NCBI GenBank assembly: GCA_902702965.1 | Contig: CACRXP010000568.1 | Coordinates: 4,146-68,145, forward strand | Direction: 5' to 3' | Origin: Spirometra erinaceieuropaei | Lineage: Eukaryota > Platyhelminthes > Cestoda > Diphyllobothriidea > Diphyllobothriidae | DNA length: 64,000 nucleotides | Shown here: positions 5,331 through 24,698 of the stretch, piece after piece | How positions within the stretch are numbered: the first letter of the stretch is position 1 | Layout: every line of letters starts with the position of its first letter | Translations under genes and position numbers: made by a program | Notes under the pieces: model-generated | Databases searched by the model: none | What the model was told of the DNA's origin: nothing | Seen by the model: only the letters and a program-made list of their open reading frames with translations

Positions 5331-5365
5331 GTGAAAATCCACCTAGCAATATTCAGAAGACAAAG

Positions 5366-5406
5366 TGGCGAGCGAACGTTGCTTTCGATAACTTCTCGTC
5401 AGGCCA
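5366..5406 (-). ncRNA. Hammerhead ribozyme motif, PLE-1 (intact core)
   Basis: On the minus strand the core is UGGC, CUGACGA, a two-pair helix II (GA..UC with a 5-nt loop), GAA, helix III AGC..GCU, cleavage-site C, then GCCA. Helix I is UGGC/GCCA. All conserved core bases of the hammerhead fold (CUGANGA, GAA, NUH as CUC) are present. The helix III loop contains the palindrome AACGUU. Hammerheads of this minimal helix-III type are described from PLEs. It sits in the extra partial linker monomer at the 3' end of the array. Self-cleavage is inferred, not shown. Confidence 0.75.
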
Positions 5407-5453
5407 GTACAGTTATATGGGATGGGGTACAGTGAGTGCAGAAATCGATAAAT

Positions 5454-5830
5454 CAGAAGACGAGGTGGCGAGCATACGTAGCTTTCGATAAATTCTCGTC
5501 GGGCCAGTACAGTTATATAGGAACGGGGTAGAAGTAAAACATGCAAGCGATAAGAGAAGTCGATAAAAGTACTCCTTAAACAAAGGCGGGGTGGGGGACT
5601 GTGGGGGGGGGGGGGGGGGTAATGATAGTCATTGTCAGGGGCGGGGTGAGAGCGCAAGTGCGCGGGGGGAGTTGCACCGTTAGTTAGCCGTCGACCACTG
5701 TAGGCGCGGAGCCTGAACGTGGTTCTTCTGAGCGCATAAGGTTGGCTTTCGTAACCTAATGGCGGCCGCTTCCGCTGTCGCTAACAGGCGCTGGCCTAGT
5801 AGCTTAGGGTATCTCGATGGGACCTTATAA
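5454..5830 (-). repeat. PLE-1 pseudo-LTR, copy 1
   Basis: Near-identical direct repeat of 7575-7950. It covers the end of the endonuclease, the linker, the hammerhead and the lead-in to the next unit. It contains a 17-G run at 5603-5619 where the other copy has an interrupted G tract. A third, more diverged partial monomer adjoins it at 5345-5453. Confidence 0.85.
5466..5506 (-). ncRNA. Hammerhead motif, PLE-1 (core mutated)
   Basis: Same 41-nt layout as 5366-5406, but the first core segment reads CCGACGA instead of CUGACGA, which should disable catalysis. The helix III loop is UACGUA instead of AACGUU, still a palindrome. Confidence 0.7.
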
Positions 5831-6457
5831 ATCACACGAAAAGCTTCGTTGGGGTCCACACGATGTCCGGAATCGACAACATGCGCGAGAATGGCGCTGC
5901 TTATACTCCTCGTTTCGCCTTTTCCTAGCCATGCCGGGAGGTGTTCGCGTATTCTTTTGGATAAGCGCCGACTCGTGCGACCAATATAACCTGCTCCACA
6001 GGAGCAAGTGAAGGAATATATGCACATTGAGGTGGTCTGCGGTAGCAACTTATCCTTACCTCCTCCGCGTAAAATAGGGTTAGTAGAGAATGATATTTGA
6101 ACCCTTGCTGCTGGGAAGGTTCGCGAGACAGCTTGATCAAGGCGTCTCCTAAGGAGTTCACTCGTCGCGTCCCCTTGGAAAGGGACTTTGAGGAACAAAG
6201 TTTTCTTTTCAGCGGTCGGTGTGGCGGGTTTGATTGGTCTTTCGACAATGTTCTTTGCAATGAACCTGTCAGGATACCCGTTTTCTCGAAGGAAGTCCTA
6301 GATTTTTCTGAGCTCCTCCTCGATGCTATCTGTTGAGCAAATTTTTCTTGCTCTTTGTGCCAGACATCGGACTAGATTTCGTTTTTGTTGGAGGGGTACG
6401 AAACTGGCAAAGTTCGTGTATTGTCCAGACCAGGTTTTCTTCCGATAGACGCTTCTT
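5680..6457 (-). pseudogene. PLE-1 unit B: RT thumb/linker and GIY-YIG endonuclease
   Basis: The C-terminal part of the Penelope-like polyprotein in unit B. The endonuclease core is in the 5680-6198 ORF: CIYSFTCSCGAGYIGRTSRR followed by RIREH, a Cys-rich GIY-YIG variant. A helix-rich tail follows (LLGQRLLATAEAAAIRL). The preceding connector (5925-6260 and about 6260-6457) is in other frames, so at least two frameshifts break the gene. In living PLEs this domain nicks the target DNA for reverse transcription. The same domain recurs nearly identically at 24.2-24.5 kb on the plus strand. Confidence 0.85.
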
Positions 6458-7001
6458 CAGACACTGCCGTCAGGTCTCCTGCTTAGAAGAACATCTAAGA
6501 AAGGTAGCGAACCGGCCGTTTCGATCTCCAGCGTGAATTTGATCGACGGATGTGCCTGATTTGCCGCATCTAAGAGGGTAGCTACGTCGGTTTCTGCAGT
6601 GGCAATTGCAAATATATCATCAACGTAGCGACCGTAATGTTTAAGCTTATCGATCTGATCGCTTAGTTGGAATCGCTCTAATTTGCCCATGAAGACATCT
6701 GCTAGGAGAGGTCCAAGTGGTGAGCCCATAGCAACGCCGTCTACTTGTCTATAGAGTTGGTTGTCGAACAGGAACTGCACATTTAATGTGCATTTTAGTA
6801 ACAGTTCCTTGAGTGCCTTCGTCGGGAGTCCTATTTCCTGCTGACTGGCAGATAGAAAATCACAGATGTAATCAACTGTCTCGGTGACCGGAACGTTTGT
6901 AAAAAGTGGTGAGACGTCTAGCGAGAACATCACCATGCCATTGACGTTAAGGTCTTTGATGTCGTCAATGAATTCAAAGGTATCTCGGTAGCTGCGTGGT
7001 G
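6458..7001 (-). pseudogene. PLE-1 unit B: reverse transcriptase
   Basis: The 159-residue ORF at 6457-6936 shows RT palm motifs in order. These are FSLDVSPLF with the first catalytic aspartate, GVAMGSPLGPLLADVFM, YVDDIFAI with the catalytic Asp pair, and GSLPFLDVLLSR. The order and spacing fit a Penelope RT, and the GIY-YIG endonuclease downstream confirms the class. Upstream, 6937-7001 stays in register as a short lead-in (FEFIDDIKDLNVNGM) and then meets the deletion junction at about 7005. The RT finger region is therefore absent in this copy. Confidence 0.88.
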
Positions 7002-7568
7002 CTAGCTGACGCTAGCAATTTCCAATTCTAACTGATTAACTTTTCGACGAGGTATGCAAAACTTAGGACCAAGGGATAATGCTTCAAGTGATGTTTTATC
7101 AAGTGTCATATAAGAGTGATTGTGTACGTACCGACTTGGATCTTTCGGAAACCGTGATTGTGGTTTCATTTCATGTACACTTCTAAGGAGCGCATAACTT
7201 TTTGCCTCTCTGCGTTTCCTTCCTATGGATTGAGTGTAACTGTCGAACTCTTGTCTTTCGTCGTCTGTCAGGGTGTCTAGGACGGCTGTGCGTTGACCCA
7301 CGTGACGCTTCAGTTCTTCTATCTTTACGAGGGTACTTTCCAGTTGATTCTCAGCGTATCTTTTCAGAGTTTCTGTGGTAAGGACTGTACGGCTACGCCG
7401 CAGCGCTCTCCAGTAGTGGTTTGGGTATTCGTTTCTCTCAATGCATTCCCCGATAAACTTGGCCATTACTTTCGCCTCCACAGGCTTGGTGCTGAAACGT
7501 AGGTACCCATTGAGTGCCCTCAACACCGTGGGATCTTTGGACTGTTTTAGAGTTGCGAAAATTCCCAT
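7002..7568 (-). pseudogene. PLE-1 unit B: N-terminal region
   Basis: The likely start is the ATG at 7568 (MGIFATLKQS). The open frame extends further upstream only through the linker and hammerhead, which is incidental. The region is basic and helical, with FLxR-like segments, and ends at PRRKVNQLELEI before the deletion junction. It corresponds to the N-terminal part that precedes the RT fingers in Penelope-like proteins. The same start codon and the next few codons appear, truncated, at the end of the plus-strand insertion at 24681-24698, which supports the start choice. Confidence 0.75.
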
Positions 7569-7574
7569 AGCAGT

Positions 7575-7950
7575 AATCAGAAGACGAGGTGGCGAGCATA
7601 CGTAACTTTCGATAAATTCTCGTCGGGCCAGTACAGTTATATAGGAACGGGGTAGAAGTAAAACATGCAAGCGATAAGAGAAGTCGATAAAAGTACTCCT
7701 TAAACAAAGGCGGGGTGGGGGACTGTGGGGGAGGGGGTGGGGGTAATGATAGTCATTGTCAGGGGCGGGGTGAGAACGCAAGTGCGCTGGGGGAGTTGCA
7801 CCGTTAGTCAGCCGTCGACCACTGTAGGCGCGGAGCCTGAACGTGGTTCTTCTGAGCGCATAAGGTTGGCTTTCGTAACCTAATGGCGGCCGCTTCCGCT
7901 GTCGCTAACAGGCGCTGGCCCAGTAGCTTAGAGTGGCTCAAGGGGACCTT
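7575..7950 (-). repeat. PLE-1 pseudo-LTR, copy 2
   Basis: Direct repeat partner of 5454-5830, separating truncated unit A from unit B. It differs by a few substitutions and by the G-tract length. Confidence 0.85.
7590..7630 (-). ncRNA. Hammerhead motif, PLE-1 (core mutated)
   Basis: Same layout as 5466-5506, with the CCGACGA change and UACGUA loop. Helix III is AGU..GCU, with one G-U pair. Confidence 0.68.
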
Positions 7951-9012
7951 ATAAAGCATACGTAATGCTTCTGCGGGGTCCACATGATACCATGAATCCA
8001 CTGCATGTGCGAGTATGGCGCTATCTATTCTCCTAGTTACACCTTTTGCCAGCCTTGTGAGAAGGTGCTATCGTGTTCTTTTGGAAAGGCGCCGACTCGT
8101 ACGGCCAATATAACCTGCTTCACGAGAGTAAGTGAATGAGTAGATGCATATTGATGCAGTCTGAGGTGGCAGCCTATCCTTGCCTTCTCCGCGTAAAATA
8201 GGGTTAGTAGAGAATGATATGCAAAGCTTCACTGCTAGGAAAGTTCTCGAGACAGCTTGGTCAAGGCGTCTTCTTATAGGACTTCACTCGCAACGTCTCC
8301 TTGGGAAGGAACTTTGAGGAACAAAGTTTTCTTTTCGGTGGTCAGTCTGGTGGGTTTTGTGAGTTGTTCGTCAAGGCTCCTAGCAATGAGCCTGTCAGGA
8401 TACCCGTTTTCGCAAGGCTTGTCCTGAACTTTTTAAGCTCCTCGATACTATCTGTTCAACAAATTTTTCTAACTCTTGGTGCCAACCACCTCACTAGATT
8501 TCGTTTTTACTGAGGAGGTACAACACTAGCGAAATACGTGTTTCGTCCAAACTAGGTTTTCTTCTGATAGACGCTCCTTTGGATGCTTCTGTCAGATATC
8601 CTGTTTAGAAAGATATCTAAGGAAAGAAGCGATGCGCCGATTCTATCTCCAATGTTGATTTTATCGATGGATGTGCTTGGTTTATAGCATTTAGGAGGGC
8701 AGCAACGTCGGCTTCTGTGGTGGAAATTGCAAAGATATCATCAACGTAGCGACCGTAATGCTTGAGCTTTTCGATCTGATCGCTCAGTTGAAATCTATTC
8801 TGCTTGCCCATGATGACGTCGGCTAGGAGAGGTCCGAGAGGCTAGACAATAGCAATGTCGTCTTTTTGTCTATAGGGCTGCTTTGGCAAAAAGGAACTGC
8901 ACATGAAATGCGCACCTTAGTAATAGTTCCTTGAGTGTGTCCGTCGGCATTCCTATTTCTTGCTGATTGGCAGATAGAAAATCACATTTGACTATATCTG
9001 TGATTTGGGTCT
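7804..9012 (-). pseudogene. PLE-1 unit A: truncated RT and GIY-YIG endonuclease
   Basis: An older, more diverged PLE-1 unit upstream (minus strand) of unit B. The RT palm with GRYVDDIFAIST is in the 8617-8811 ORF. The endonuclease tail (LLGQRLLATAEAAAIRL) is in 7804-8001, and the core between lies in broken frames at about 8017-8300. Its 5' end stops near 9012, inside the RT, so it is 5'-truncated. Its 3' end runs directly into the unit B linker, giving the head-to-tail junction. Confidence 0.8.
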
Positions 9013-9189
9013 AAGATAATATTTACCAATATCCTAGCGTTGCTTTGCCGTTTAACCCCTGTGGGTTTTTTACATCTTCTGTTTCTAAGTAGGGGTGTAG
9101 GAGTGTCAGCGGTGGGTTCACGTGATGGTCGTAGTGGTCGCTCACTTGCTTGCAGGTTAGACTACGCCTAGCGTCCATTTGCTGGCACC

Positions 9190-9840
9190 CAACTCTAACC
9201 TGTGGCTCCACGTAGCTGGGTTCTGCTCAGCGGCCACACCCCAGGCAACCGCCTCGACCGGCGGGCTAAATCAGGTGAAGGCGCTGTGCCCGTTGTGCCG
9301 CGTGCACAGTGTATCGCGGACTCCACCGGATGGATGGTCGGATGGAACTTCGCGTCGGCACCGTCGTGAAGAGGCTCCGTCTGGTACGCGGCTGGACAGC
9401 CGGTGACGGGTTGGATCTCCACATCGACATCGCCTTAACGCGCCCACCTACGCCGTCGGAGACCGCGGCTTACGGCAAATCAGAGTCGTTCTCCACTACT
9501 AACAAGTAGTCGTGGCCCTATAGTTGAGCTCGGCCGCGCCACAACGGCACATGGGCAGCCCTATTCAGGGATGACACTGCCTGCCCTCACGAGGGGATGG
9601 GCCCGGAAAATGTGGCCTAAACATTGCTGGCCACCACGTCGTCTGCAGGCTAACCAGGGTCGCAGATGTCATAAACATGGTCGAAACAATCAAAATCAAA
9701 ACAACAACATATTTACTCGTTCTCCTCCTCATCCTACCTCTTCTTCCTCTTCCTCTGGCTATTCTTCTGCCCATTCTTCTCCTTCGGCATCTTCTTCTCC
9801 ACCTCCTCTACGCCGCCCTACTCGTCGCCAGACTGGCAGG
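9190..9840 (+). other. LINE 5' leader
   Basis: GC-rich non-coding leader followed by a pyrimidine-rich, TCT/TCC-repeating stretch (9718-9800) just before the endonuclease start. The ORF beginning at 9571 runs through it in the endonuclease frame, so part of it may encode a Ser/Pro-rich N-terminus. Confidence 0.55.
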
Positions 9841-10654
9841 GTGAGTCCGCTCACTCTGGCAGCCTGGAATGTTCGTTCCCGAGGAGCCACCTACCGGAAC
9901 GGAGGCCGGCGCTAGTGGTCCGGAAACTGGCGCACTACAAGGTGGACGTCGCCGCACTCAGCGAGACTCGATTCTTCGAACACGTCCAACTGGAGGAGGT
10001 GGGTGCCGGCCACACCTTCTTCTGGAGCGGTCGTCCCAGGGCAGAGGGACGAGATGCGGGCGTCGCCTTCGCCATCCGGAACGACATAGTGGGACGACTG
10101 CCCTTTTTGCCGCAGGGCATCAACGATCGCCTGATGAGCCTCCGTCTGCCTCTCCGGGGGCGGGCGGCAAATTCGCAACCATCATCAGCGCCTACGCACC
10201 GCCGATGAGCAGCCCCGACGCCACAAGAGACAAATTCTACGAGGACCTGCACGCCCTCTTGGCGACTGTGTCGGAGGCGAACAAGTTGATTGTCCTTGGT
10301 GACTTCAACGCCCGCGTCGGCACAGACCATGCTGCTTGGAGAGGAGTGCTGGGTCCCCATGGTCTCCGCGGCTCAAACGACAATGGTCTGTTGCTTCTCC
10401 GCACCTGCGCAGAACGCCGCCTCATCCTGACGAAAACCCTCTTCTGTCAGCCGGAGCGAGAGAAGGCCACCTGGAGGCATCCTCGGTGGCGTCAGTGGCA
10501 CCTGCTGGACTATGTCCTCGTCCGGAGGCGAGATCAGCGGGACGTGCTGGTGAAAAAGGCGATCGCGGGCGCTGACGGGTGGACCGACCATCGCCTCGTC
10601 ATCTCGAAGATGCGTATTCGCCTACAACCTCGCAGGAGACCACAAGGTATGTGA
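9841..10654 (+). pseudogene. LINE EEP endonuclease domain
   Basis: The apurinic-type (EEP) endonuclease that nicks the target for LINE integration. Motifs in order are [10 protein letters not shown] at the start (9850), VAALSETRF (about 9945), [11 protein letters not shown] (about 10171), [12 protein letters not shown] (about 10285) and [11 protein letters not shown] (about 10590). These are the family's metal- and phosphate-binding motifs, including the Asn-Val, Ser-Glu-Thr, Gly-Asp-Phe-Asn and Asp-His signatures. They lie in three frames (9841-9915, 9915-10165, 10165-10654), with a deletion near 9890-9915. The copy is broken. Confidence 0.88.
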
Positions 10655-11258
10655 CCCCCAGGTAAGCTGAATACTGCCTTGTTGTCTTTGCCCGCTCACC
10701 ATCTTCATTTCAGCATTGAGCTAGCTCAACGGCTAGACAATCTTCCCATCGCTGCCGCCGCTGCCGAGAACGCCTCCGTGGAGAACCGCTGGTGTCAACT
10801 GCGAGACACGGTCCAGTCGACGGCACTAGCCGTCCTCGGTCGCGCACGCCGCCAACACCAGGACTGGTTCGAAGACAACGACGCCGTCATCAGAAATCTG
10901 CTCGCCGTGAAGAACCGCCTGCACAAAGCCTACGTAGACCACCCTACGGACGACAACAGACCTACTTTCTACCGCAGTCGCCGCCAACTTCAGCAACGAC
11001 TGCACGAGATGCTGAACGCCTGGACTGCTCTCAAAGCTGAGGAGATCCAAGGGTACGCGGACCGCAACGAGTGGGAGAGCTTCTTCTCTGCGATCAAAGC
11101 TGTCTACGGTCCACCGAAGAAGGGCTCTGCTCCTCTCGTCAGCGCCGTCGGCAGTACCCTCCTGACTGAGAAGACGAAAAATTCTACAGCGATAGGCTGA
11201 GCATTTCCGAGGCGTCCTCAACCGCCCCTTCGCCATCTCCGACGACGCCATCGCCCGT
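10655..11258 (+). pseudogene. LINE connector between endonuclease and RT
   Basis: Continues the endonuclease frame after a stop at 10652-10654. The 10679-11200 ORF is helical and basic, with RARRQHQDWFEDND and AEEIQGYADRNEWESFFSAI, the pre-RT region of EEP LINEs. A frameshift near 11185 moves the reading into the RT frame. Confidence 0.8.
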
Positions 11259-12443
11259 TTGCCGCAAGTGGAGACCAACGTGGACCTCGACCTCCCGCCA
11301 TCTCTTCAGGAAACCATCAGGGTCGTGCAGCAGCTCTCCAGAGGGAAAGCACCCGGATCGGACGCAACCCCTGCTGAGGTTTACAAGCACGGAGGTCCTC
11401 GACTAATGGATCACCTGACTGCGCTCTTCCAAGGGATGTGGCGTCAAGGTGAAGTCCCGCAAGATTTCAAAGACGCACCCATCGTGCATCTCTACAAGCG
11501 AAAAGGGAATCGCCAAGTCTGCGACAATCACCGCGGCATCTCCTTGTTGAACATCGCCGGAAAGATCTTCGTTCGCACCCTCCTCAACCGCTTGAATAAT
11601 CATCTGGAACAGGGCCTTCTGCCGGAAAGCCAATGCGGCTTCCGTCGTCATCGTGGGACCACGGATATGATCTCCGCAGCCCGTCAACTTCAGGAGAAGT
11701 GCCAGGAGATGCGGACCCACCTGTACTCTACCTTTGTGGACCTGACGAAAGCCTTCGACACGGTGAATCGTGAAGGAATGTGTAAGATCATGCAGAAATT
11801 CGGCTGTTTGGAGCGATCCATTTAGATGGTGCGTCAGCTGCACGACGGTATGATGGCGCGAGTCACGGACAACGGAGTCGTCACAGAGGCATTCGCAGTG
11901 ACCAACGGAGTGAAGCAGGGATGCGTCCTGGCGTCTACCCTCTTCAGTCTTATGTTTTCTGTCATGCAGATGGACGCCTACCGTGATAAACGCCCCGGTA
12001 TCCGCATCGCCTACAGGACGGACGGTCACCTTCTGAATCAACGGCGGATGCACTCCCGATCGCGCGTATCCACAACCACCGTTCACAAAATTCTCTTCGC
12101 CGACGACTGTGCCCTGAACACCACCTCTGAAGAGGAGATGCGACGGAGCATGGACCTGTTCTCCGCCGCCTGCGAGAACTTTGGTCTGGTCATCAACACG
12201 CAGAAGACGGTAATCATGCATCAACCGCCACCCAACACAGTTACTCACCCCAATTCGCCGCCGCCACAAATCAGCGTGAACGGAACACAAATGCAAGTGG
12301 TGGAGAACTTCCCGTACCTGGGCAGCACCCTCTCCGTAGCATCAAAATCGATTACGAAGTCGCTCGCAGGATTTCGAAAGCCAGTCAAGCCATTGGCCGC
12401 CTCCAAAGCACAGTTTAGAATCGTTATGGTCTCCAACTGAGCG
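11259..12443 (+). pseudogene. LINE reverse transcriptase domain
   Basis: RT of the LINE, in one frame split by a TAG at 11823-11825. Motifs are GKAPGSDATPAEVYK, IVHLYKRKGNR, NHRGISLLNIAGK, QCGFRRHRGTTDMI, TFVDLTKAFDTVNRE, NGVKQGCVLAS and LFADDCALN (catalytic Asp pair), then VENFPYLGSTLS. The C-terminal connection domain is absent because homology stops near 12443. The 297-codon minus-strand ORF at 11403-12296 is an antisense shadow. Confidence 0.92.
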
Positions 12444-12468
12444 ACAGTCCGTAGATTTAGTCGCAAAC

Positions 12469-13771
12469 GTGCTGGGATATTTTATGCAATGCACAGTGAA
12501 GGAAACTTTTCCTGGAGAGCGTGAACATTGCCATTTTGAGGATGTTGATATGTCCAGAGCATGTACTGAAAGTCTGGTAGTTACCGGTTTAAAACTGTAC
12601 AAGGTCGACTTGTTCTGTTTTAACAGTAACGCTAATCATTACTGGAAATTTGTACGCCAGTTCGAAGTGTGCGTGGACAGCAAAAATGAAGAGGCTGGAC
12701 AGGAGCTCCTGCACTCGACTTACTATTGTAGAGGTGATGCGGAAGTTGCAGTATAATATTGTATCATGTTGCCCTCATCGCTAGCTTATTCTGGAGCACG
12801 GAAATATTGAGGAACTTGTTTAACCAATCCCAAATTGTGGCCTGTTCTCTTCTGGATGGTGACCTCGGGCAGGCACGCCAAGTTAACTAGACCTTAAAGA
12901 CACTTTCAGACCTGTGCATGGAGATAAAAGTTGTGAAGTAACGCTTAAGCAAATGAACTAAGTGTTCGAATTACAGTCGCTAAATATCCTGGAGTAAACA
13001 GTGCGCTGTCCACCGCTCTACATGCAAATCCAGAGAAATAAAGAGGCTGACAGAATCCTTATAAGTGGCAGAGATCCAGATTTCGCAGATCTCATGGAAT
13101 TAGTAAATATTCGTGCTAGGATAGCGAGGAGTCGTTCCCGGCAAACGTCTAGATACAAGAATGACAAGCGGCCTCAACAGTCCTTTATCGTCAGTTCGCA
13201 ACATCGAAAACGGGAAAACCTTAATAATTTCGTGATTCCCGAGTGTGAAGCCTGATCGGCGACCATGTTACATATCCTCTTTAGCATACAAAGTGGCAAG
13301 TCGTTCACCTTTACTTTCAATGGCTTTCGCAGATAGGTATGATGGCGTGCGGGACCACAAAGCGTGTTTCGTTTGTCTTAGTAATATGCACTTTGCCAAG
13401 ATGTGCAGGTCCAGAGAAAGTCGTATTTAGTCCGGCTGCAAAAGACGTCATCATACGCTTTTGCATATAATGTTATCAGAGAACGATCGACGGACATTAA
13501 AAGATAAATAGCTTCGTGACCCGACTGGGATTGCGTACCATTATGTCTAGGGGTTATTTGCTCCAAATTAGCAGCCCTAACAGGAAACGTCGAAACTTAG
13601 GCATTTTGGACAATGGCTCGGACGTCACCGTGAAAAAAAAAGACAGCTCCTCATCGACAATAGAGTGTTCACAAACCAACGGCCTTGGCAATAAAGGGCT
13701 TCAGCGGCCTAGTCTAATGTAACTCTGAAGTCAGAAGTTTAAGAGTGATACACAAGAATAGAATTGAATCA
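12469..13771 (+). pseudogene. BEL/Pao element: gag and start of protease
   Basis: Decayed 5' part of a BEL/Pao LTR retrotransposon. The 12469-12756 ORF holds HYWKFVRQFEVCVDSK, like the Pao gag core. The 13245-13430 ORF carries a zinc knuckle CFVCLSNMHFAKMC (C-x2-C-x4-H-x4-C). The protease start is LDNGSDVT at about 13606-13630. Frames shift repeatedly. No 5' LTR is visible, because the element joins truncated LINE sequence at about 12443. The reading is interrupted at 13771 by PLE-2 and resumes at 17638. The gag assignment relies on motif resemblance and on the Pao pol that follows. Confidence 0.72.
13760..13771 (+). repeat. Target-site duplication, left
   Basis: AGAATTGAATCA, repeated at 17626-17637, flanks the whole PLE-2 insertion inside the BEL/Pao protease region. 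Confidence 0.75.
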
Positions 13772-14126
13772 TTTGAAGACGAAGACAGGCTCTCCGGAAG
13801 AGGTTTATTTAAGTGCTGACGTTTCAAAGAGCTGGGTGGGCTCTTCATTGTCAAAGCGTAAAATGCACTTCTTTGATCAAAAATTTAATTTAAAGTGGCA
13901 GTTGTATTGGCCGGCCTCATGCTGATCGATTTTTTTCCTTCTCTCGCTGCCTCGGCCTCTCGGGAGATGGTTGACGGGCGTTTTGCCTGTGTGCTTTGTG
14001 AGTCACTACTCCGTCAAGGGGAACTGATTGGACTTTAGTCGGATGGTCGGTCTGGCGGTTCTTCTTCTTCCTCACCGAGTAAACTCAGCGTCGGGCTATC
14101 TCCGTGCGGCCTTCTTAAGTCCGGTG
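13772..14126 (-). repeat. PLE-2 pseudo-LTR, left copy
   Basis: Near-identical to 16720-17073. It holds the 3' UTR, a hammerhead-like stem (13815-13857, minus strand) and AAATAAA just downstream on the minus strand. Confidence 0.85.
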
Positions 14127-15340
14127 TGTTTGCTTGGTCCTGAGCTCTACGATTGTGATGACGTAAGACGTTGAAAGCTGCAGGAAGGTACAGATGCTTG
14201 TTGATAGGGTGGGCATCGGAGAACCACGCCTCGAGAGTTAGCCGTTCTGGTTTCGTGTTGCCTCGGCCTAAAATGGTAGCCTTCTGGAGATCAAAAGTAT
14301 GCCCGATTCTCCAACGTGTGTTGCTAGTTGAGAGTTAGGGTCTAACCTCCGAGTGGCCGATTTGTGTTCTTGTAGGCGAGTTGGCAACCTCCGCCCGGTT
14401 TCGCCCACATAGTTGCAGTCACCCTCATTGCAATTTATTTTGTAGTTGACTGCTGAGGTTTCAGTGGGTGACAATGGGTCCTTAGGTTGCATTTGGCGAC
14501 GTCGAATTGCTGCTTGAGGTCGATGGGCTATGCCTACTCTTGTGGGTTGTAACAGTCGCGAGACCGCCTCAGGGACCCCTTTAACGTAAGGAATGGCCCT
14601 CCAGACTTCGGGTTGCTGCTCATTTGGCCGTTGTCTGGGCGCCCAACGTCTGCTTCTCTCGATGAAATGTCTGGGATAACCATTGGCTGCAAATAGGTTC
14701 ACAAGGTACAATCGTTCGGCCCTTTTATCTTCTGGTGTGCTGCAGTGTGTTTCGACTCTTTGGAATAGAGTGCGGACACAACTACGTTTGTGAGACACAG
14801 GATGGTTGCTTTTGAAGTGTAGGATCTGTCTCGTGTCGGTGGATTTTCGGAATACTGTAGTTTGCAGCTGTCCAGTGGTACACCGGCGCACAAATACGTC
14901 AAGAAAAGGCAGTCGGTTGTTTGTTTCTGCTTCCATCGTAAATTGGATATCCGGGTCAACCGAGGTGAGTAGTTCCTTTAGGTGTTCAATGTCAGTTGTT
15001 TTGACAACGACGAAGGTTTCATCAGCATAGTGGGCCCAGAACTTTGGTTGATACTTGGTGAGCACCAAATGTTCTACCCGTTGAAGAACTACTTCAGCGA
15101 TTAGGCCTGATATAGGGGAGCCCATAGGAGTGCCTTTTATTTGTTCGTACATTTGTCCGCCGAAGGTGAAATAGGTCTTGAGACAGTGTCGCAGAAGCTC
15201 GAGCAGATGCTCAGACTTCAGGGGTTTGTCTCTCTCCTTATAACGCTCTGCCAGTAGTTTGTCCACAACGTCTATCGCTAATTGCTGTGGAATGGAGGTG
15301 AAGAGCGAAACGACATCAAAGGATACCATGGACTCGTCTG
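14127..15340 (-). pseudogene. PLE-2 reverse transcriptase and GIY-YIG endonuclease
   Basis: The longest open PLE frame in the window (14268-15329, 353 codons). RT motifs are MVSFDVVSLFTSIP (first catalytic Asp), QIKGTPMGSPISGLIAEVVLQ, HYADETFVVV at the catalytic-pair position, and NRLPFLDVFVRR. The usual YxDD reads YADE, so the second catalytic Asp is lost. The endonuclease follows at about 14450-14330 with VNYKINCNEGDCNYVGETGR and RLQEH. A one-base frameshift at about 14295-14330 separates it from its own tail, which continues in another frame to about 14127 with KATILGRGN. The copy is near-complete but inactive by sequence. Confidence 0.9.
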
Positions 15341-16093
15341 GCTCTAACCTCAGATGTTTTATGCGTTCGAGGAATTGAAACGCAGATTATACTGTTGTTG
15401 GTGAGCCTTCGGCCAAAAACTTAAGACGACCGAACATCCATTTTGTCAAACCGTACGTCGGAGTTCCACGAAGGTATACGATTGGCCTGAGTGGGACATT
15501 TGCCTTGTGCACCTTCGGTAGACCGTAAAAACGAGCCGTGGCGGTGTCAGTGGGTTTCATGCATGAAACCAGTCGTTGGGTGTAATCGCCCCCTTGGCCC
15601 TTAGATTTCCTAGACTTTTGTTTATCCTAGTGACTAGATTTTTCATTTCGCTGGCACGGCATTGTTTGTATGAATGCTGGTCTTCGAATAAGTCCTGTAC
15701 CTTGTTCTTGTAATCCGATTTGTCCAGTACAACTGTTGAACATCCTTTGTCAGCTGGCAGAATAATTATGTCCTTGTCTGCTTCTAGGCTTTTCAGTGCT
15801 CGTTGTTCCATATTGCTAAGAGTTTCGCACCTCCCGTGTCGCATAAGCAACGAGGAGGTTTGGTGACAGATCAAATCTTTAGTCTCTTCTGATGCCTTTG
15901 TTAATTAAAGAACAGATTCGAAGGCGGCAATAAACTCTGTGGGTGCGGCATCTGCTGTGTTAAAAGTGGCTCCACGTTCCCGGATTGCGAGTCGTGTGTT
16001 CGTAAGGGTTTTAGATGAAAGGTTGTGAACAAGGACGCCTGTCTAGTTGTCGGAGCTTGGTACTCGAAGTTCTTCCAATTTTATAGATAATTC
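15341..16093 (-). pseudogene. PLE-2 RT fingers region
   Basis: The 15557-15874 ORF holds DIIILPADKGCSTVVLDKSDY, the characteristic fingers motif of Penelope RTs. It is preceded on the minus strand by VHNLSSKTLTNTRLAI at about 16020. 15341-15556 links it to the palm in broken frames. The frame is broken by a stop near 15905 and by the short insertion at 16094-16316. Confidence 0.82.
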
Positions 16094-16316
16094 GAGGCTC
16101 GGGTGTTCCACACTTCGCGCTTGGATATGGCTGGCTGACGACGGCTAATAAGCCAGAAATGGCCATTCTAGTCTCCCTTGTCTTTGTCGGTAATACCATT
16201 CTGCCTATATAGCATGCGCCGCTGTGCGGCTGCTGGTTGGGCTCGAGAGAGAGCCCTTAAGGCACAACGGAACGAGTGAGTTCCTTATGAACGATCGGTG
16301 AGCGCCCCCTACCATT
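16094..16316. mobile_element. 223-bp short interspersed insertion (modules A+B) inside PLE-2
   Basis: Flanked by the direct repeat ATAATTC (16087-16093 and 16317-16323). Removing the insert and one repeat copy rejoins the PLE-2 reading frame without a shift, so this is a clean insertion. The insert holds module A (16131-16196) and module B (16213-16295). It has no coding capacity, no clear terminal inverted repeats and no poly-A. It is a SINE-like or otherwise non-autonomous element. Confidence 0.72.
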
Positions 16317-16323
16317 ATAATTC

Positions 16324-16720
16324 CTTGTTTCTTTTGGCACGTACTTTCTGAGCATGTCTGAGAATGGTCAGGTCTATATTGTTCGATTCTTCACCGGCAG
16401 CTCTCCAGAGATAACACTTAGATTGGTCTATCTCTAAATTGTAGCGTTTAAGTCTTTAATGGCAATCGTGAATTAGCACTCTTGTCATTTTTCTGCCAAG
16501 TCGGGCTACAGTCTCCCTTGCCAGAGCAGAATTCACAGGAGGCTTTTAAGTGACGCTCTTTGGAGTCAATTGATTGTCCAGGCAGCGGTGGAGGAAGTCC
16601 AGTTGTGCTTGAGTTGACGCAATCCGCAGGGCGAATTTTTCCCAACGGCGCGCTGCACGGAGCACTGATGGCTCAAAAAATCTGTTCAGATTGGCAAAGT
16701 TAAGATATCCGGGTTAATTA
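16324..16720 (-). pseudogene. PLE-2 N-terminal region
   Basis: On the minus strand it reads NFANLNRFFEPSVL, then QAQLDFLHRCLDNQLTPKSV, typical of PLE N-termini, followed by a stop and KRNKEL just before the short insertion. Its first codons coincide with the point where other PLE-2 insertions end (17625, 1625). Confidence 0.72.
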
Positions 16721-17073
16721 TTTGAAGACGAAGACAGGCTCTCCGGAAGAGGTTTATTTAAGTGCTGACGTTTCAAAGAGCTGGGTGAGCTCTTCATTGT
16801 CAAAGCGTAAAATGCACTTAATCGATCAGAAATTTAATTTAAAGTGGCAGTTGTGTTGGCCGGCCTCATGCTGATCGATTTTTTTCCTTCTCTCGCTGCC
16901 TCGGCCTCTCGGGAGATGGTTGACGGGCGTTTTGCCTGTGTGCTTTGTGAGTCACCACTCCGTCGAGGGGAACTGATTGGACTTTAGTTGGGTGGTCGGT
17001 CTGGCGGTTCTTCTTCTTCCTCACCGAGTAAACTCAGCGTCGGGCTATCTCCGTGCGGCCTTCTTAAGTCCTG
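16720..17073 (-). repeat. PLE-2 pseudo-LTR, right copy
   Basis: Direct repeat of 13772-14126, with a hammerhead-like stem at 16764-16806 (minus strand). It ends at the inversion point near 17074. Confidence 0.85.
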
Positions 17074-17075
17074 CA

Positions 17076-17625
17076 GAGGGCTACCATCCTAGGCCGAGGC
17101 AAAACGAAAACAGAACGGCTAACTCTCGAGGCGTGGTTCTCCGATGCCCACTCTATCAACAGGCATCTGTACCTTCCTGCAGCTTACAAAGTCCTACGTC
17201 ATCACAATCGTAGAGCTCAGGACCAAACAAACACACCGGACTTAAGAAGGCCGCACGGAGACAGCCCGACGCTGAGTATACTCGGTGAGGAAGAAGAAGA
17301 ACCGCCAGACCGACCATCCGACTAAAGTCCAATCAGTTCCCCTTGACGGAGTAGTGACTCACAAAGCACACAGGCAAAACGCCCGTCAACCATCTCCCGA
17401 GAGGCCGAGGTAGCGAGAGGAGGAAAACAATCGATCAGCATGAGACCGGTCAACACAACTGCCACTTTAAATTAAATTTCTGATCGATTTAGTGCATTTT
17501 ACGCTTTGACAATGAAGAGCTCACCCAGCTCTTTGAAACGTCAGCACTTAAATAAACCTCTTCCGGAGAGCCTGTCTTTGTCTTCAAATGATCAACCCGG
17601 ATATCTCAACTTTTCCAATCTGAAC
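17076..17625 (+). repeat. PLE-2 inverted 3' arm
   Basis: A plus-strand copy of the minus-strand sequence at about 14290-13772. It starts in the endonuclease tail (GRGKTKTERLT) and runs through the 3' UTR, the stem and gaaacgtcagc block (17503-17546) and AAATAAA. It continues about 40 bp into the next-unit start, ending before the target duplication. With 16720-17073 it forms a large palindrome. Confidence 0.85.
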
Positions 17626-17637
17626 AGAATTGAATCA
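17626..17637 (+). repeat. Target-site duplication, right
   Basis: AGAATTGAATCA, the partner of 13760-13771. Confidence 0.75.
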
Positions 17638-18340
17638 GTCATGATTGAAGGGACTTTAATGGTTAAAGACTTGTCATTCCGTGCAGAACCATCAATAAAA
17701 GTGATAACATCTTTGTGGCCGCACCTGAGCGGTATGGCGCTCGACGAGATTACGGATTGCAAGGTTAGCAAAGCCATCGGAAATGATATCGCGGAAGCTC
17801 ACTGGGTGCCTAACCAACGTCTGGGTGGCAAGAATGGGCCGCTCGCCGAAAAAGCATTTCTGGGCTGAATGCTGGCTGGATCTTCACATCACAGACGAAA
17901 GCAGAACTCTGTCCGTGACGCGCAACATAAAAATGGTATATGGCTCGGAGATTTCGGACATTTTGACAATGACTGCGAGCCACCCATAGGAAAATAAACT
18001 GATACTGGCTATTGCGCGATCCTTCGTTGTACACATAAAACTGTATAATCAGCCGCCAGTCCTTTGGCGAGACGGTAAGCTGAATTTACCAGAAAATCTT
18101 TAGTTAACGAGTAAACGGCAGATCTATCTCAAAAATAAATTTGGTTGAGAGAACGAATCATTTCAAAAATAATAGCAAGCGTTCCTATCCTACATTACTA
18201 AGGGGTACATCGAGTGAGTTAACAGCACCAAAACGTTTTCAGTTCTCAGACACTGATACCCACTTCACTACCCCTTTGTCAAGCCCCAGAAACCAGAAAA
18301 AATCCGTGTCGTATTAGACTGTCCTGCCAAGTGCTAGCGC
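17638..18340 (+). pseudogene. BEL/Pao protease and protease-RT connector
   Basis: Resumes the Pao polyprotein after the PLE-2 insertion. 17638-17868 reads through SLWPHLSGMALDEI and EAHWVPNQRLGGKNGP, the conserved stretch between protease and RT in Pao-type pol. It continues with stops and frameshifts to the RT start at about 18340. Confidence 0.8.
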
Positions 18341-19640: not shown

Positions 19641-19984
19641 ATAGCGCCCCTGGGGCACTGTCAGTCCCCTTTGAACTCAGGAAGAACACCTAAAACAAAC
19701 TCATCCATTTCGTCTGCACTTTGGCTTCATTTGTTATGGGTGTTTGTTCGTCGAAGTGTGAATAAATAACCTACAGAGGGGTTCTGTAGCGGTTTTCTAG
19801 TTATTTTTAGTTATGCTGAAAGAAAGTGTGGGATTAGTGATTTCTTATACGGGAGTCTTTCGTTTATCAAGGTATCTCGAATTATAAATAGGACAGAGTA
19901 CAGTAGATTACTTGCTTCCATAGGTGATGTTGTTATAAGATATGGGCTCCAGTCTATTGACTTAATTTAGTTATTCATGGAGTC
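19641..19984. other. Boundary between BEL/Pao and CR1 sequence
   Basis: Neither element is recognisable here with confidence. The exact insertion point and any target duplication could not be placed. Confidence 0.4.
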
Positions 19985-20660
19985 AACGTCAATTTTTTGG
20001 GTTTAGGCGGGTGTTACTAAAATGGGGTGCAAATTTTGCCTTTAATGGGAACGTTGATATTATTGCGTTGTGGTAACTTTCAAAGGTTACGCAGTCGTAG
20101 TACATATGGAGGGGCCAGATATCGTTGGTGAGAATAACGTCTAGTTTATTGTCTCCTCGGGTGGGTTTGTCAACTATTTGTGCCCAGTTATTAAAGATAT
20201 TTATTGCTAGCAATTCTTCGTGCCTGGTAGTTGCCGATAATTCGATTCAGTTTATTTCTGGGCGGTTCAGGTCACCTGTGATTATCTTATATTCAATTTT
20301 GATGTTTGCTATATTATTTATTATGTGGGTGAGGCTTGTGTCATCATTACTACATTCCGGAGGGGAGTCGAGGCATCCGACTAGTATGTTTTTCTGAGTA
20401 TGAGATTTTATTGTGGCAAAACACGCTTATCCAGTAAAGGTTTCGGCTGGGACATCAGTACCACTTTGTTCAATGCTAGTATTGATATAGATAAGACAAC
20501 CTCCGCCTCGTTTAGTAACACTGTCCTGTCGATAGAAATTATAATTTAGGCCATTTAGTGAAACATTAGATATAAGTTCATTTGCCCATGTTTCTGTAAT
20601 GCAAATTATATCGGGATTATATATTTCTACAAAAGTTTCACTTTGAGATATTTTGTTGAC
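19985..20660 (-). pseudogene. CR1-like LINE: EEP endonuclease
   Basis: On the minus strand, PDIICITETWANELI (about 20620), RGGGCLIYIN (about 20500), IITGDLNRPEIN (about 20270) and IVDKPTRGDNKLDVILTND (about 20150) are the EEP motifs in CR1/jockey order. Single stops break it. The 3' side (RT) is absent, so only the 5' half of the LINE is present. Confidence 0.82.
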
Positions 20661-22010
20661 AATCGATCTCGGATTTATAGGAGCTATCTTCAGGATGTGA
20701 TATATGGAAGAGGTGGCATGTGGTGAAAAAAGGATTTCCGAGGGTGCGTTGATTGAGTGATGGACTAACTGGAGGTAAGTGTGTGGTTCTTGGAGGATTT
20801 GGTGATGGGTATGGCGAAGCGTGAGTGCATGGGCTAGTGTGTATGGATTGAGTGTACATATGGGGAGGTGGGCTAACTAGGTGGTAATTGTACCTAAATG
20901 GAGTTTCAGTTGGGAGATGTAAAAGCTAAAGTAATTTGTGGGGTTGTCATTAGGTGGTAAGAAGTTTGGAATGTTAGTGGTTTGACTTATTCTATGCCAT
21001 GCACGTGAAAATTGGCGAGTCGAGGTACAGTTGTAGAAGCTTATTTGTTTTTGGTAAAAGTTTAGAGAACTCCTATTTGCTATGTCTACATACTTAGGAC
21101 GTTATGGTTGTGCTGGTGTGCTTAATAAGGCCTTTTGGTCTCTGTGCCTTGTTCGGCAGTCGATTTCTAGTACTGGTTTATCGGTTTTCGGGGGCGTAGT
21201 AAAACCTATATTGTTATCTAATGGTGTCATATGACTTGGTTTGTGATTCGCGTCATCGTTCTGTTCTAGTTGAACGTTGTTGTTTTATTGTGCCTCTCTT
21301 GTTCCTTTCTGCCCAGCAGTCATAACTGCTTTTTCATTTACGCGTTTTTTGTCACGAGAACTAGAATCAGAAGTACTTGCTGGAGGTCCCTCTACGGGGG
21401 CTGTGGGTTTATTATCTTGTTTACGCTGGTCTGTGCATTTCTTTTTATTATTGCCAGAAGTAGAGTTATTAGCTATAGGTTCATTTGTGGGACCGGAGTG
21501 CTGATTACCGTGTTTGTAGCTGGTGTCTGTTTTTCGAAGTTTACGTTTTTGCATCGGTGTCAAATCCGGACCTATAAATGCGTTTCGGTTCCTCAGATTT
21601 CTGTTTAACTCGGGGTTTTGTAAGACAAGCTCGGATTCGGTCTGTGAATAGAAGGTCACTAAGACGGGTTTATTTTTGCTTCTATAGTGAAGTCTTTTGG
21701 TGGTAGCTACTCGGATGTTTAGGTAACATGAATGTATAAGTTTTTGAATTGATGGTGTTGGGTTGGCCATGTAGGGTATATTGCGGATAATCAAAATGAG
21801 TCTGGGTTTTTGTCTATCCGCGACTTCTGATGAAACCAAATGTATAATCGATTCTATTTGAGGTAGGCTCGTTAGGCTGCTCGTGAATGTATTTCAGTTT
21901 GTTAGGGAGTCGAGAATCGCAAAATGTGTTCATTTTTCTTGATAACCCTCTGTAAACGCACGATGACCGAAAGATGTGCTTTGTCGACAGCAAACTTAAC
22001 ATCGTTCATG
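20661..22010 (-). pseudogene. CR1-like LINE: ORF1 protein and spacer
   Basis: The 184-codon ORF at 21285-21839 has LILIIRNIPYM, VLVTFYSQTES and FIGPDLTPMQKRKLRK, followed by a Ser/Lys/Thr-rich tail. This is an RNA-binding-like fold as seen in ORF1 of CR1-type LINEs. 21840-22010 extends the similarity in a broken frame. 20661-21284 is the AT-rich ORF1-ORF2 spacer with no clear coding. ORF1p would bind LINE RNA in the cytoplasm. Confidence 0.68.
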
Positions 22011-22430
22011 GTTAATTGGAGAGAGTGTAAAAGAAGGTATGTGTTATTTTCGACACCTACTAAAAATCGGTTGAAAACTAAAGCAGAAATATGCCAAATG
22101 TTTCAGTTATAAGCAAATTTCAACTTATCTCAGATCTGAGGATTTTGAACGATTGTGCACAAACGGGCTAGATATCCTGAATTAAGGAAGACACAAGTTT
22201 AAGTTCATGCATTAATTCTATGGGATTATTTAGGCAAATTATACATTTTTGCAGCTAGGTATGACTACAAGGCGTTTTCGCATGGCTCATGCATTCCAAG
22301 CAGTTCATTGTAACCTCTACTGGCGAGGCACCTCAAGACACCTGTCCGAGTTTCCGAAATGCGCCGAGCCAGCATTAGTGTAATAAAGGTTACAAAAAGC
22401 CCTTTTTCGAAGAATTGAGTATTCTGCAAT
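22011..22430. other. No gene seen
   Basis: This lies between the CR1 5' end and the recognisable Pao integrase. It may hold decayed Pao pol but I cannot support that. Confidence 0.4.
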
Positions 22431-23661
22431 CTGCATCAGCTGATCACCAGAAGAAAAGTCCGTGGGAACCATCAGCTTTAAAAGCTTAATTTTCAGATGA
22501 AGAAGAAGTGTGTGTTGGTGGTCACCTTAAATACTTGGATTTTTGTGAATCGTTAAAGCACTCATCAGTCCCGCCGTAAATCGTCCCGTGGTGAAATTAA
22601 TCATCCACTACTTTTAATGAATCGGAAGGCCACTCAGGGACAGCAAATTCTAAGCACAGTCCATCAAAAACTTTAGACTCAAAAAGGAACCGTTTCTGTC
22701 AAACGTGTTACTGATAGGTGTCCACTATGAAAACAGAAATTTCGACAACTTCAGAGGCAGATGATATCCCCGCTTCCTTTAAACTGAACGGGAGTGGTTG
22801 ATATTCTTTCAAAGGCGTTGGGTTGGATTATTTTGGCCCATTAATGGTCAAACGTGGATGGTCTTCCGAGAAACGTTATGGTTGTGTGTTCAGCTGTTTA
22901 CAGCCGAGAGCGGCTCATCTTGAGATAGCCGCTGGCTTAGCCATAAAATCTTTCGTTTAGTGCCTGATGAGATTCGTGAGCAGATGCGGACGGCCCAGTG
23001 ACATCTACAGTGACAACGGAACCAATGTCTGGAGCAATAACGGAACTCCGAAAAGGCTTGCACAATTGGGATCAAAAGAGAGTGTCGGCTTGACTGCTAA
23101 ATCTCGAGACACATAGGCACTTTAACCTACCTGCTGTCAGCCATCGTGGAGGTATCTGGGAACGCAGGATGAGGTCTCTACGGCGGATTATCCTGGTTCT
23201 ATATAAGGAGCAGTTTCTAACTGATGAGCAGCTCATTACCCTCCTCGTGTAGGTTGAACGTATATTAAATAACGGTCTGCTTATCCCGCTAACATCTAAC
23301 AGTGGGAATTTAGGATCGCTTACTCCGAACAGCTTATCGTTTATGAGAAACTGTCCGTCGCTGCCTAGCAGTGACAATTAGGTAGCGCAGTACCACGTCG
23401 GACTGAATCAAGTTCACCACCTCACTGGTGTGTTCTGGGAGCGTTGGGCAAACGAATATCTTTCAAACCCTCAACAATGAACAAAACAGCTTAGAGAATC
23501 TGAGAACCTGAAACCAGGCGACGTTATTTTTGCGTCCGGAAAGCGTTCTTTTTGAGATAAGTGGCCTTTAGAAATGACAGATACGTGCAAAGAGTCACGA
23601 CGGTCTCGTTAGAACCGTATATATTAGAACGGCGGGCTGTCTCTTAGGAAAGGATGTTGGA
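22431..23661 (+). pseudogene. BEL/Pao integrase (interrupted by PLE-1)
   Basis: The 22470-22560 region resembles the pre-integrase motif (EEVCVGGHLKYLDF). The HHCC region is degraded. The catalytic core shows VGLDYFGPLMVKRG (22817), RYGCVF, and DIYSDNGTNVW (about 23000), giving the first two acidic residues; the third is not recognisable. 23096-23661 carries the C-terminal region with many shifts. At 23661 a PLE-1 fragment interrupts it, and the last codons resume at 24699 and end in TAG at 24745-24747. Confidence 0.82.
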
Positions 23662-24508
23662 GATGGAGTCGGCTGGTTCGCTTCCTTTCTTAGATGTCCT
23701 TCTAAACAGGAGATCTGACGATAGCATCCGAAGGAGTGTCTATCGAAAGAAAACCTGGTCTGGACAATACACGAACTTCGCTAGTTTCGTACCTCTCCAA
23801 CAAAAACGGAATCTAGTCAGGTGTTTGGCACACAGGGCTAGAAAAATTTGTTCGAAAGATAGTATCGAGGAGGAACTTAGAAAAATCCAGGACTTGCTTC
23901 GCGAAAATGGGTATCCTGACAGGTTCATTGCAAAGAACCTTGCCGAACGACCTGCAAAACCCACCACACTAACCGCCGAGAAGAAAACGTTGTTCCTCAA
24001 AGTCCCCTTCCAAGGAGACGCTGCAGGTGAACTCCTAAGAAGACGCCTTGACCAAGCTGTCTCGGGAACCTTCCCAGCAGCAAGGGTTCGCATATCATTC
24101 TTCACTAACCCTATTCTACGCGGAGAAGGCAAGGATAGGCTGCCACCTCAGACCGCCTCAATGTGCATCTACTCATTCACTTGCTCCTGTGGCGCAGGTT
24201 ATATTGGTCGTACGAGTCGGCGCCTTTCCAAAAGAATACGAGAGCACCTTCCCGCATGGCTGGCAAAGGGTGAAACTAGGAGAATAGACAGCGCCATCCT
24301 TGCGTATGCAGTGGACTCAGGGCATCGTGTGGACCCCACCGAAGCATTTCGTGTGATTTACAAGGTCCCCTCGAGCTACCCTAAGCTACTGGGCCAGCGC
24401 CTGCTAGCAACAGCAGAAGCGGCCGCCATAAGGTTACGAAAACCGACCATATGCGCCCAAAAGAACCTTGTTCAGGCTCCGCGCTTACCGTGGTCAAAGG
24501 TTGACTAA
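23662..24508 (+). pseudogene. PLE-1 RT end and GIY-YIG endonuclease (open frame)
   Basis: One uninterrupted frame of about 280 codons, the cleanest PLE-1 coding stretch here. It starts after the catalytic palm at ESAGSLPFLDVLLNRR, then has the thumb and connector. The endonuclease at residues 165-250 shows CIYSFTCSCGAGYIGRTSRR, RIREH and the LLGQRLLATAEAAAIRL tail. The start at 23654 is artificial, because it begins in BEL/Pao sequence. Without the palm it cannot act as an RT. The open frame suggests a younger insertion than the 5-9 kb array. Confidence 0.9.
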
Positions 24509-24616
24509 CCATATGCAACTTTCGGCGCCCTTCCGCTCTTGCCGAGCCTGTAATTTAAAACCTAACTTTTATCGATTTTTGTTTCACTCACTCTACCCCG
24601 CCCTATGTAATTGTAT

Positions 24617-24657
24617 TGGCCTGATGAGAATTTACCGAAAGGAACGTTCACTCGCCA
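24617..24657 (+). ncRNA. Hammerhead ribozyme motif, PLE-1 (intact core)
   Basis: UGGC, CUGAUGA, GAAUUUACC, GAA, helix III AGG..ACU, cleavage-site C, GCCA. The core is intact; helix II is reduced to one sure pair and helix III to two. The loop has the AACGUU palindrome. It is at the same position relative to the endonuclease stop and the next-unit start as in the minus-strand array. Confidence 0.72.
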
Positions 24658-24698
24658 CTCTCTCTTCTGAATATAGTGATGGGAATTTTCACACATTT

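What the first reader, a model, noticed from the sequence alone, without database searches (positions are those of the whole stretch)
5366..24657. Four 41-nt hammerhead ribozyme motifs in PLE-1, two with intact cores
Motifs at 5366-5406(-), 5466-5506(-), 7590-7630(-) and 24617-24657(+) share length and position between the endonuclease stop and the next-unit start. Two have the full core (CUGANGA, GAA, CUC); two have a U-to-C change in the first core segment that should kill cleavage. Hammerheads in PLE pseudo-LTRs are established, but here an active and a dead version sit about 100 bp apart in one array.
Basis: partly seen in the sequence, partly recalled or inferred. Interest (0 to 1): 0.75.

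Follow-up and report, generated by a model that had tools for sequence, protein, structure and literature searches.

The report
Retrotransposon hammerhead ribozymes with altered core
A tapeworm retrotransposon carries tiny self-cutting RNA motifs, and the one-letter core change seen in two of these four copies is not random decay but the fixed state of a widely copied lineage, which makes it a natural test of whether such elements need the ribozyme.

Summary
The four 41-nt motifs are real, at the stated coordinates, and not chance. They are minimal type I hammerhead motifs of a Penelope-like element (PLE); protein similarity points to a Spirometra/Sparganum tapeworm. Rfam gives no hammerhead hit.

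(1) The U4C copies (5466, 7590) are not private decay: exact 35-mers occur 337 times with C4 and 387 times with U4, and C4 marks its own lineage with its own coding sequence (16 of 16 C4 against 24 of 24 U4 loci with coding; tree split 100/100). (2) "Should kill cleavage" is too strong: PMC3088659 says a U4C viroid hammerhead is slow in vitro yet sufficient in vivo.

"Active beside dead" is a mosaic: a C4-lineage partial tandem (about 7920-5451) sits in a U4-lineage element whose pLTR, with HHR 5366, resumes at 5450. In 100 of 344 C4-lineage copies sampled with the core masked, N7 (free in hammerheads) varies in 18, the nine other core sites in 1 to 5 each. This hints that the altered ribozyme is still constrained. 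Cleavage is untested; the matching U4-lineage control search did not complete.

The parts
5366..5406 (-). Hammerhead motif, intact core CUGACGA, U4 lineage (S2 subfamily 35-mer); predicted cut between 5370 and 5369
5466..5506 (-). Hammerhead motif with U4C core CCGACGA and loop UACGUA, C4 lineage; predicted site between 5470 and 5469
7590..7630 (-). Hammerhead motif with U4C core CCGACGA, C4 lineage; predicted site between 7594 and 7593, 25 nt before the ATG of the next unit
24617..24657 (+). Hammerhead motif, intact core CUGAUGA, U4 lineage (S1 subfamily); A.C mismatch in stem II and G.A in stem III; predicted cut between 24653 and 24654
5451..7920 (-). C4-lineage PLE stretch: 3' end of one unit with HHR 7590, then a unit (frames broken) ending in a pLTR with HHR 5466. 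The 5' boundary lies between 7921 and 7903
7921..8986 (-). U4-lineage PLE coding remnant (many stops) upstream of the C4 stretch; 8986 is where homology to the second unit ends
5326..5450 (-). U4-type pLTR that resumes at TATCGATTT after the C4 stretch, with HHR 5366 and a tail
7566..7568 (-). Start codon of the second unit's ORF (MGIF...); 3 of 3 N-terminal homologues found start at the same Met
6460..6936 (-). Reverse-transcriptase part of the second unit (RVT_1, E 6.8e-8)
23661..24698 (+). 5'-truncated S1 (U4-lineage) PLE insertion, no target-site duplication beyond one ambiguous A; the same site without the insertion is at 27455/27456
23693..24508 (+). Open endonuclease-end frame of that copy, 96% identical to a Sparganum proliferum protein

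Best explanation
These are minimal type I hammerhead motifs at the pLTR/ORF junction of a tapeworm PLE. Stem III is weak as a hairpin but its loop is palindromic, so they most likely act in pairs (double hammerhead), perhaps helped by the PLE protein, cutting multi-unit transcripts 25 nt before the ORF start. The PLE has a U4 lineage and a C4 lineage; in the C4 lineage core nucleotide U4 is fixed as C. The window array arose when a C4-lineage partial tandem entered the pLTR region of an older U4-lineage copy. Shown: motifs, lineages, mosaic junctions, position of the ORF start. Inferred: pairing, cleavage, the route of entry, and that the C4 form is a slow but still used ribozyme rather than a dead one (about even odds). 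In a mixed pair such as 5466 with 5366, the intact core should cut the partner's site, not the reverse.
For: Motifs beyond chance. Lineage: 35-mers U4 387, C4 337, reversed control 0; in the first 100 listed of each, loop AACGTT in 93 U4 and TACGTA in 92 C4; upstream coding closer to P0002 in 16 of 16 C4 loci and to P0001 in 24 of 24 U4 loci that have coding, of 30 loci each; tree split 12 C4 against 19 U4 plus the mosaic row, 100/100. Mosaic: 14 of 17 diagnostic sites U4-type at 8088-7921, 38 of 38 C4-type at 7903-7573. Constraint in the C4 lineage: N7 changed in 18 of 100, the other nine core sites 28 of 900, p 6e-8; N7 against position 4, p 0.0008. Pairing: stem III hairpins 0 to -1.1 kcal/mol, homodimer duplexes -7.1 to -12.1. 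ORF start: 3 of 3 homologues. U4C precedent: PMC3088659.
Against: No Rfam hit. The hammerhead fold is not the predicted minimum for the 41-mers or for the 141-nt cis tandem (double hammerhead -7.7, two monomers -6.0, minimum -22.4). Copy 24617 has mismatches in stems II and III. In the C4 lineage the flank just 3' of the motif is as conserved as the core (4% over +40..+51), so the block may be kept for another reason. The 100 masked copies are related, the first 100 of 344 by contig, and N7 is a CpG site. The masked search of the S2 subfamily did not complete; the S1 one is too uniform to test.
Confidence: 0.72

Rival explanations
1. The C4 motif is a dead ribozyme that rides along in a successful lineage. 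The block is kept as promoter, protein-binding site or reverse-transcription start region, so this PLE lineage does not need hammerhead cleavage.
For: U4 is a core nucleotide and U4C lowers activity considerably in vitro (PMC3088659). Hammerhead mutants of a lizard PLE did not affect insertion in vitro (PMC11167929). The flank at +40..+51 is as conserved as the core in C4, and a TATATAA-like box lies just upstream. Long stop-free stretches in three C4 loci show that the lineage did well with U4C.
Against: The only variable core site in the masked C4 sample is N7, the one a hammerhead leaves free; a promoter or binding site gives no reason for that.
Confidence: 0.42
2. The mosaic array came from recombination, gene conversion or template switching between two PLE copies (or from misassembly), not from insertion of a C4 element into the pLTR of a U4 element.
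For: The 5' junction (7921-7903) is in register inside shared sequence, and part of the interrupted element's end is missing. The assembly shows haplotype-like duplication elsewhere in the window.
Against: The only N run in the window is 25747-26651, not at these junctions. The C4 end falls at the pLTR 3' end (CTTCTGA...) where many fetched copies end, beside an AT-rich pLTR site of the kind a PLE protein prefers (PMC11167929). PMC3846280 describes a PLE 5' junction made by microhomology.
Confidence: 0.3
3. The U4C changes are private decay of two old copies.
For: Core decay does occur: 4 of the first 100 C4 copies listed are S2-type with C at position 4, and one S1 copy at C212 is CCGATGA.
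Against: 337 exact C4 copies, 92 of the first 100 listed with the lineage loop UACGUA; one split in the coding tree.
Confidence: 0.02
4. Chance resemblance to a hammerhead.
For: No Rfam match.
Against: Nulls near zero; thousands of related copies at the same place in a PLE; PLE hammerheads are established in other animals (PMC6155905, PMC7761336, PMC11167929; passages read).
Confidence: 0.02

Closest known systems
PLE-associated minimal type I hammerheads, some shown to cleave as dimers (Cervera and De la Pena 2014; Lunse, Weinberg and Breaker 2017; neither held, known here only as cited in PMC7761336 and PMC6466107)
   Same: In PLE pLTRs, very short stem III, palindromic loop III, tandem occurrence
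   Different: A lineage with U4 fixed as C; stem II of only one or two pairs; no cleavage data here
Hammerhead of the Anolis PLE Poseidon/PAc (PMC11167929, passages read)
   Same: At the pLTR/ORF junction of a GIY-YIG PLE; tandem units; insertions end a little past the hammerhead
   Different: [quoted passage not shown] PAc has the consensus core and was shown to cleave only with its protein
U4C viroid hammerhead (Ambros and Flores 1998, not held; cited in PMC3088659)
   Same: The same core change, tolerated in nature
   Different: Infectious viroid RNA, not a retrotransposon lineage
Amphibian retrozyme and newt satellite hammerheads (PMC7229834, passages read)
   Same: Stem III too weak alone, palindromic loop, more active as dimers
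   Different: Non-autonomous repeats of about 330-350 bp, not protein-coding PLEs

Membership tests
Type I hammerhead ribozyme | Core CUGANGA ... GAAA ... UH with the right order and spacing | tested here: met
   Met by 5366 and 24617
Type I hammerhead ribozyme (copies 5466, 7590) | Full core including U4 | tested here: not met
   CCGACGA in both; so these are filed as a hammerhead variant, not as a consensus hammerhead
Type I hammerhead ribozyme | Three stems, open end at stem I | tested here: inconclusive
   Stem I 4 bp in all; stem II 2 bp (1 bp in 24617); stem III 3 bp (2 bp in 24617); not the predicted minimum fold. PMC3088659 reports natural stems II of two and even one pair
Type I hammerhead ribozyme | Match to an Rfam hammerhead model | tested here: not met
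Type I hammerhead ribozyme | Self-cleavage | not testable with these tools
   Needs an RNA assay
PLE dimeric hammerhead | Lies in the pLTR of a PLE | tested here: met
PLE dimeric hammerhead | Weak stem III with palindromic loop | tested here: met
   AACGTT in 93 of the first 100 U4 and TACGTA in 92 of the first 100 C4 copies listed; duplex far stronger than hairpin
PLE dimeric hammerhead | Cleaves as a dimer | not testable with these tools
   Needs an RNA assay; the cis double fold is not the predicted minimum
Penelope-like element | Reverse transcriptase of PLE type | tested here: met
   RVT_1 in the second unit; relatives are tapeworm and fluke reverse-transcriptase proteins
Penelope-like element | GIY-YIG endonuclease | tested here: inconclusive
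   No Pfam GIY-YIG match in the frames scanned; a relative from Schistocephalus solidus (P0053) is named 'GIY-YIG domain-containing protein'
Penelope-like element | pLTRs, partial tandems, optional tail | tested here: met
   compared with PMC3846280 and PMC11167929 (passages)

The most novel reading that the evidence does not exclude
An autonomous retrotransposon lineage has fixed a U4C hammerhead core and kept the rest of the core, position 4 included, under hammerhead-type constraint: a naturally slowed, protein-assisted or substrate-only ribozyme that spares multi-unit RNA, with mixed pairs of the two lineages cutting one way only.
Probability: 0.4. Interest if true: 0.7.

Novelty: new variant of a known kind. 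Interest (0 to 1): 0.52.

Why it matters
PMC7761336 calls the in vivo role of PLE hammerheads a mystery, and PMC11167929 found that hammerhead mutants did not affect insertion in vitro. Two lineages of one PLE in one genome, one with the textbook core and one with U4C, each with hundreds of exact copies, are a natural comparison. If C4 RNA cuts, the textbook core is not required; if it does not, a PLE can spread without hammerhead cleavage.

Tried and rejected
Chance motif: rejected. Relatives in viral contigs: 5 pattern matches lack the rest of the hammerhead as printed, and the protein scan confirmed no relative. Start codon inside the hammerhead core (the AUG of CUGAUGA): rejected, because that frame is not the PLE frame and 3 of 3 N-terminal homologues found start at the downstream Met. 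Idea that U4C and N7C exist to remove in-frame UGA UGA stops: dropped, since I saw no in-frame ATG upstream. Gene models reading through a hammerhead copy: one of the 80 proteins (P0048). 100-nt same-strand tandems as a general feature: not supported; in the 60 loci L014-L073 no two exact motifs lie on one strand, and I saw only the window pair and a triple at C212. Fisher test of the variable columns of the four motifs, 1 of 22 core and stem I columns against 8 of 19 others, p 0.006: after the fact and superseded. Masked-core test in S1 (100 of 187 listed): by my reading 6 copies depart at a core site other than N7, one of them at N7 as well; too uniform to test. Masked-core test in S2: not completed. 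Rows dropped: one search kept 27 of 30 C4, 12 of 15 S2-like and 13 of 14 S1-like rows; one search used 29 of 60 loci plus three window rows, those with coding to the endonuclease end; loci such as L042/L043, L051/L052 and L069/L070 overlap, so the 60 are not all independent.
Full report
Observation. The four motifs are present exactly as described. The shared 24-nt pattern hits only these four places, with none expected in shuffles, and an independent hammerhead descriptor finds the same four and nothing else in 64 kb. Layout: stem I UGGC/GCCA, core C-U/C-GANGA, stem II of one or two pairs, GAAA, stem III of two or three pairs with a palindromic loop, then CUC|G. In 5366 the core is CUGACGA; the seventh core position is free (recalled hammerhead consensus), so it is intact. 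In 5466 and 7590 the fourth position is C (U4C). Rfam finds no hammerhead.

Host and element. The endonuclease-end frame at 23693-24508 is 96% identical to a Sparganum proliferum protein (P0001) and 87% to a Spirometra erinaceieuropaei protein whose cluster has 42 members (P0002). The species is inferred from this; no tool named the assembly. PMC8166898 (passages read) gives Penelope as about 10% of both genomes. The held assembly G000 (758.7 Mb, 1932 contigs) contains the window at C568:4146-68145.

Lineages, not decay. The loose pattern (up to 2 mismatches) matches 4572 places, the reversed control 0. Exact 35-mers: U4 387, C4 337. In the first 100 listed of each, by my reading, U4 goes with loop AACGTT (93; TACGTA 1; others 6) and C4 with TACGTA (92; AACGTT 4, TACGTG 3, CACGTA 1). 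Of 60 fetched loci (30 each), 40 have PLE coding upstream on the same strand; by identity of the best stretch all 16 such C4 loci are closer to P0002 and all 24 such U4 loci to P0001, some by one point only and some over short stretches. A tree of the last 360 nt of coding splits 12 C4 rows from 19 U4 rows at 100/100; the one C4-motif row on the U4 side is the unit upstream of 7590. Median pairwise divergence in the 120 columns upstream: C4 0.21 (minimum 0.01), S1 0.03, S2 0.24; some copies there have flanks that are not pLTR, which inflates the values. Three C4 loci (L044, L054, L059) have 349-369 aa of alignment to P0002 without a stop.

The array is a mosaic. The two pLTR stretches 5451-5750 and 7575-7874 are 98% identical while the coding stretches are 78-85%. 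Sites that separate the lineages are U4-type at 8088-7921 (14 of 17; 1 C4-type, 2 neither) and C4-type at 7903-7573 (38 of 38) (reference rows: four U4 and five C4). After 5451 a U4-type pLTR resumes at TATCGATTT and carries HHR 5366. So a C4-lineage partial tandem lies inside a U4-lineage element, which puts an intact and a U4C motif 100 nt apart. PMC11167929 reports PLE cleavage at AT-rich DNA just past the ORF-pLTR junction, and PMC3846280 a 5' junction made by microhomology. The in-register 5' junction and the missing end of the host element fit that, but also fit recombination or template switching. Another close series exists: three S1 motifs 102 nt apart at C212, the middle one U4C; none was found in the 60 loci.

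How it may work. The cut would fall 25 nt before the ATG of the next unit (7568; 24679 in the + copy), and the 3 N-terminal homologues found all start at that Met. Stem III hairpins are worth 0 to -1.1 kcal/mol and homodimer duplexes -7.1 to -12.1; the mixed 5366 x 5466 duplex -9.7, while 24617 pairs poorly with the C4 copies (-3.2, -4.0). That is the anatomy of hammerheads reported to work as dimers (PMC7761336, PMC6466107, PMC7229834; passages read). In a double hammerhead the core of one copy faces the cleavage site of the other, so a C4 copy remains a substrate for an intact partner; this is inference. Against it, the cis tandem is not predicted to fold that way unaided (-7.7 against a minimum of -22.4), nor do the monomers. 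The PAc hammerhead showed no cleavage without its protein (PMC11167929), so unaided folding may not be the right test.

Is C4 dead? PMC3088659 (section 8 and part 1 of section 11 read) states that a U4C variant considerably lowers activity in vitro but suffices in vivo for a viroid. To ask the genome, I searched C4-lineage copies with the core masked: 344 copies, 100 listed. Changes from the majority: C3 3, position 4 3, G5 3, A6 4, N7 18, G8 4, A9 1, G12 5, A13 3, A14 2. N7 against the rest p 6e-8, N7 against position 4 p 0.0008, CpG C-to-T alone 11 against 2, p 0.018; 77 of 100 keep all nine other letters. N7 is the one core site that hammerheads leave free, so this looks like hammerhead constraint acting after U4C was fixed. 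Limits: copies are related, the sample is the first 100 by contig, the 3' flank is as conserved in C4 though not in S2-like copies, the S1 sample is too uniform, and the S2 control did not complete. I put a still-used ribozyme and a dead rider at about even odds.

The + strand copy. 23661-24698 is a 5'-truncated S1 insertion without target duplication beyond one ambiguous A; the same site without it lies at 27455/27456, flanks 98.6% and 97.9% identical, beyond an N run. Two uncollapsed haplotypes are the simplest reading (PMC8166898 reports such remnants in a Spirometra assembly), which would make it a recent, polymorphic insertion; a segmental duplication is not excluded.

Literature. Searches of the open library listed no paper that I could see to report a PLE lineage with a fixed U4C hammerhead, or PLE hammerheads in tapeworms. 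Most entries were seen as listings, and the key PLE-hammerhead papers are not held, so this is weak evidence of novelty.

Noticed in passing
23096-25746 and 26891-28505, N run 25747-26651: Flanks of the + strand PLE copy repeat at 98% with an empty insertion site: probably two haplotypes left in tandem in the assembly, so a PLE insertion polymorphism.
   Followed up: partly
L042, L043, L047, L051, L052, L065, L069, L070: Head-to-head neighbouring hammerhead/pLTR copies in 8 of 60 fetched loci (some loci overlap), like the inverted pLTRs described for Penelope in PMC3846280.
   Followed up: partly
G000:C212:195280-195518: Three S1 hammerheads on one strand at 102-nt spacing, the middle one CCGATGA: a short hammerhead tandem like the metazoan retrozyme arrays in layout.
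   Followed up: no
5407-5430, 5507-5530, 7631-7654 (-), 24593-24616 (+): A TATATAA-like box (CATATAAC, TATATAAC, TATGTAAT) a few nt upstream of each hammerhead; a start 25-30 nt downstream would fall inside the motif, so that only downstream copies in a transcript would be complete.
   Followed up: no
P0048: A Spirometra gene model reads through a hammerhead copy whose residues imply a change at A6.
   Followed up: no
2134-3119 and 57996-58985: A palindromic repeat (arms about 90% alike within each copy) present twice in the window at about 76% identity.
   Followed up: no
13767-17631: Several 350-520 nt segments repeated at 95-97%, partly inverted.
   Followed up: no
9869-12440 (+) and 14268-15329 (-): Fragments of other retrotransposons: endonuclease/phosphatase-like and RVT_1 matches.
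   Followed up: no
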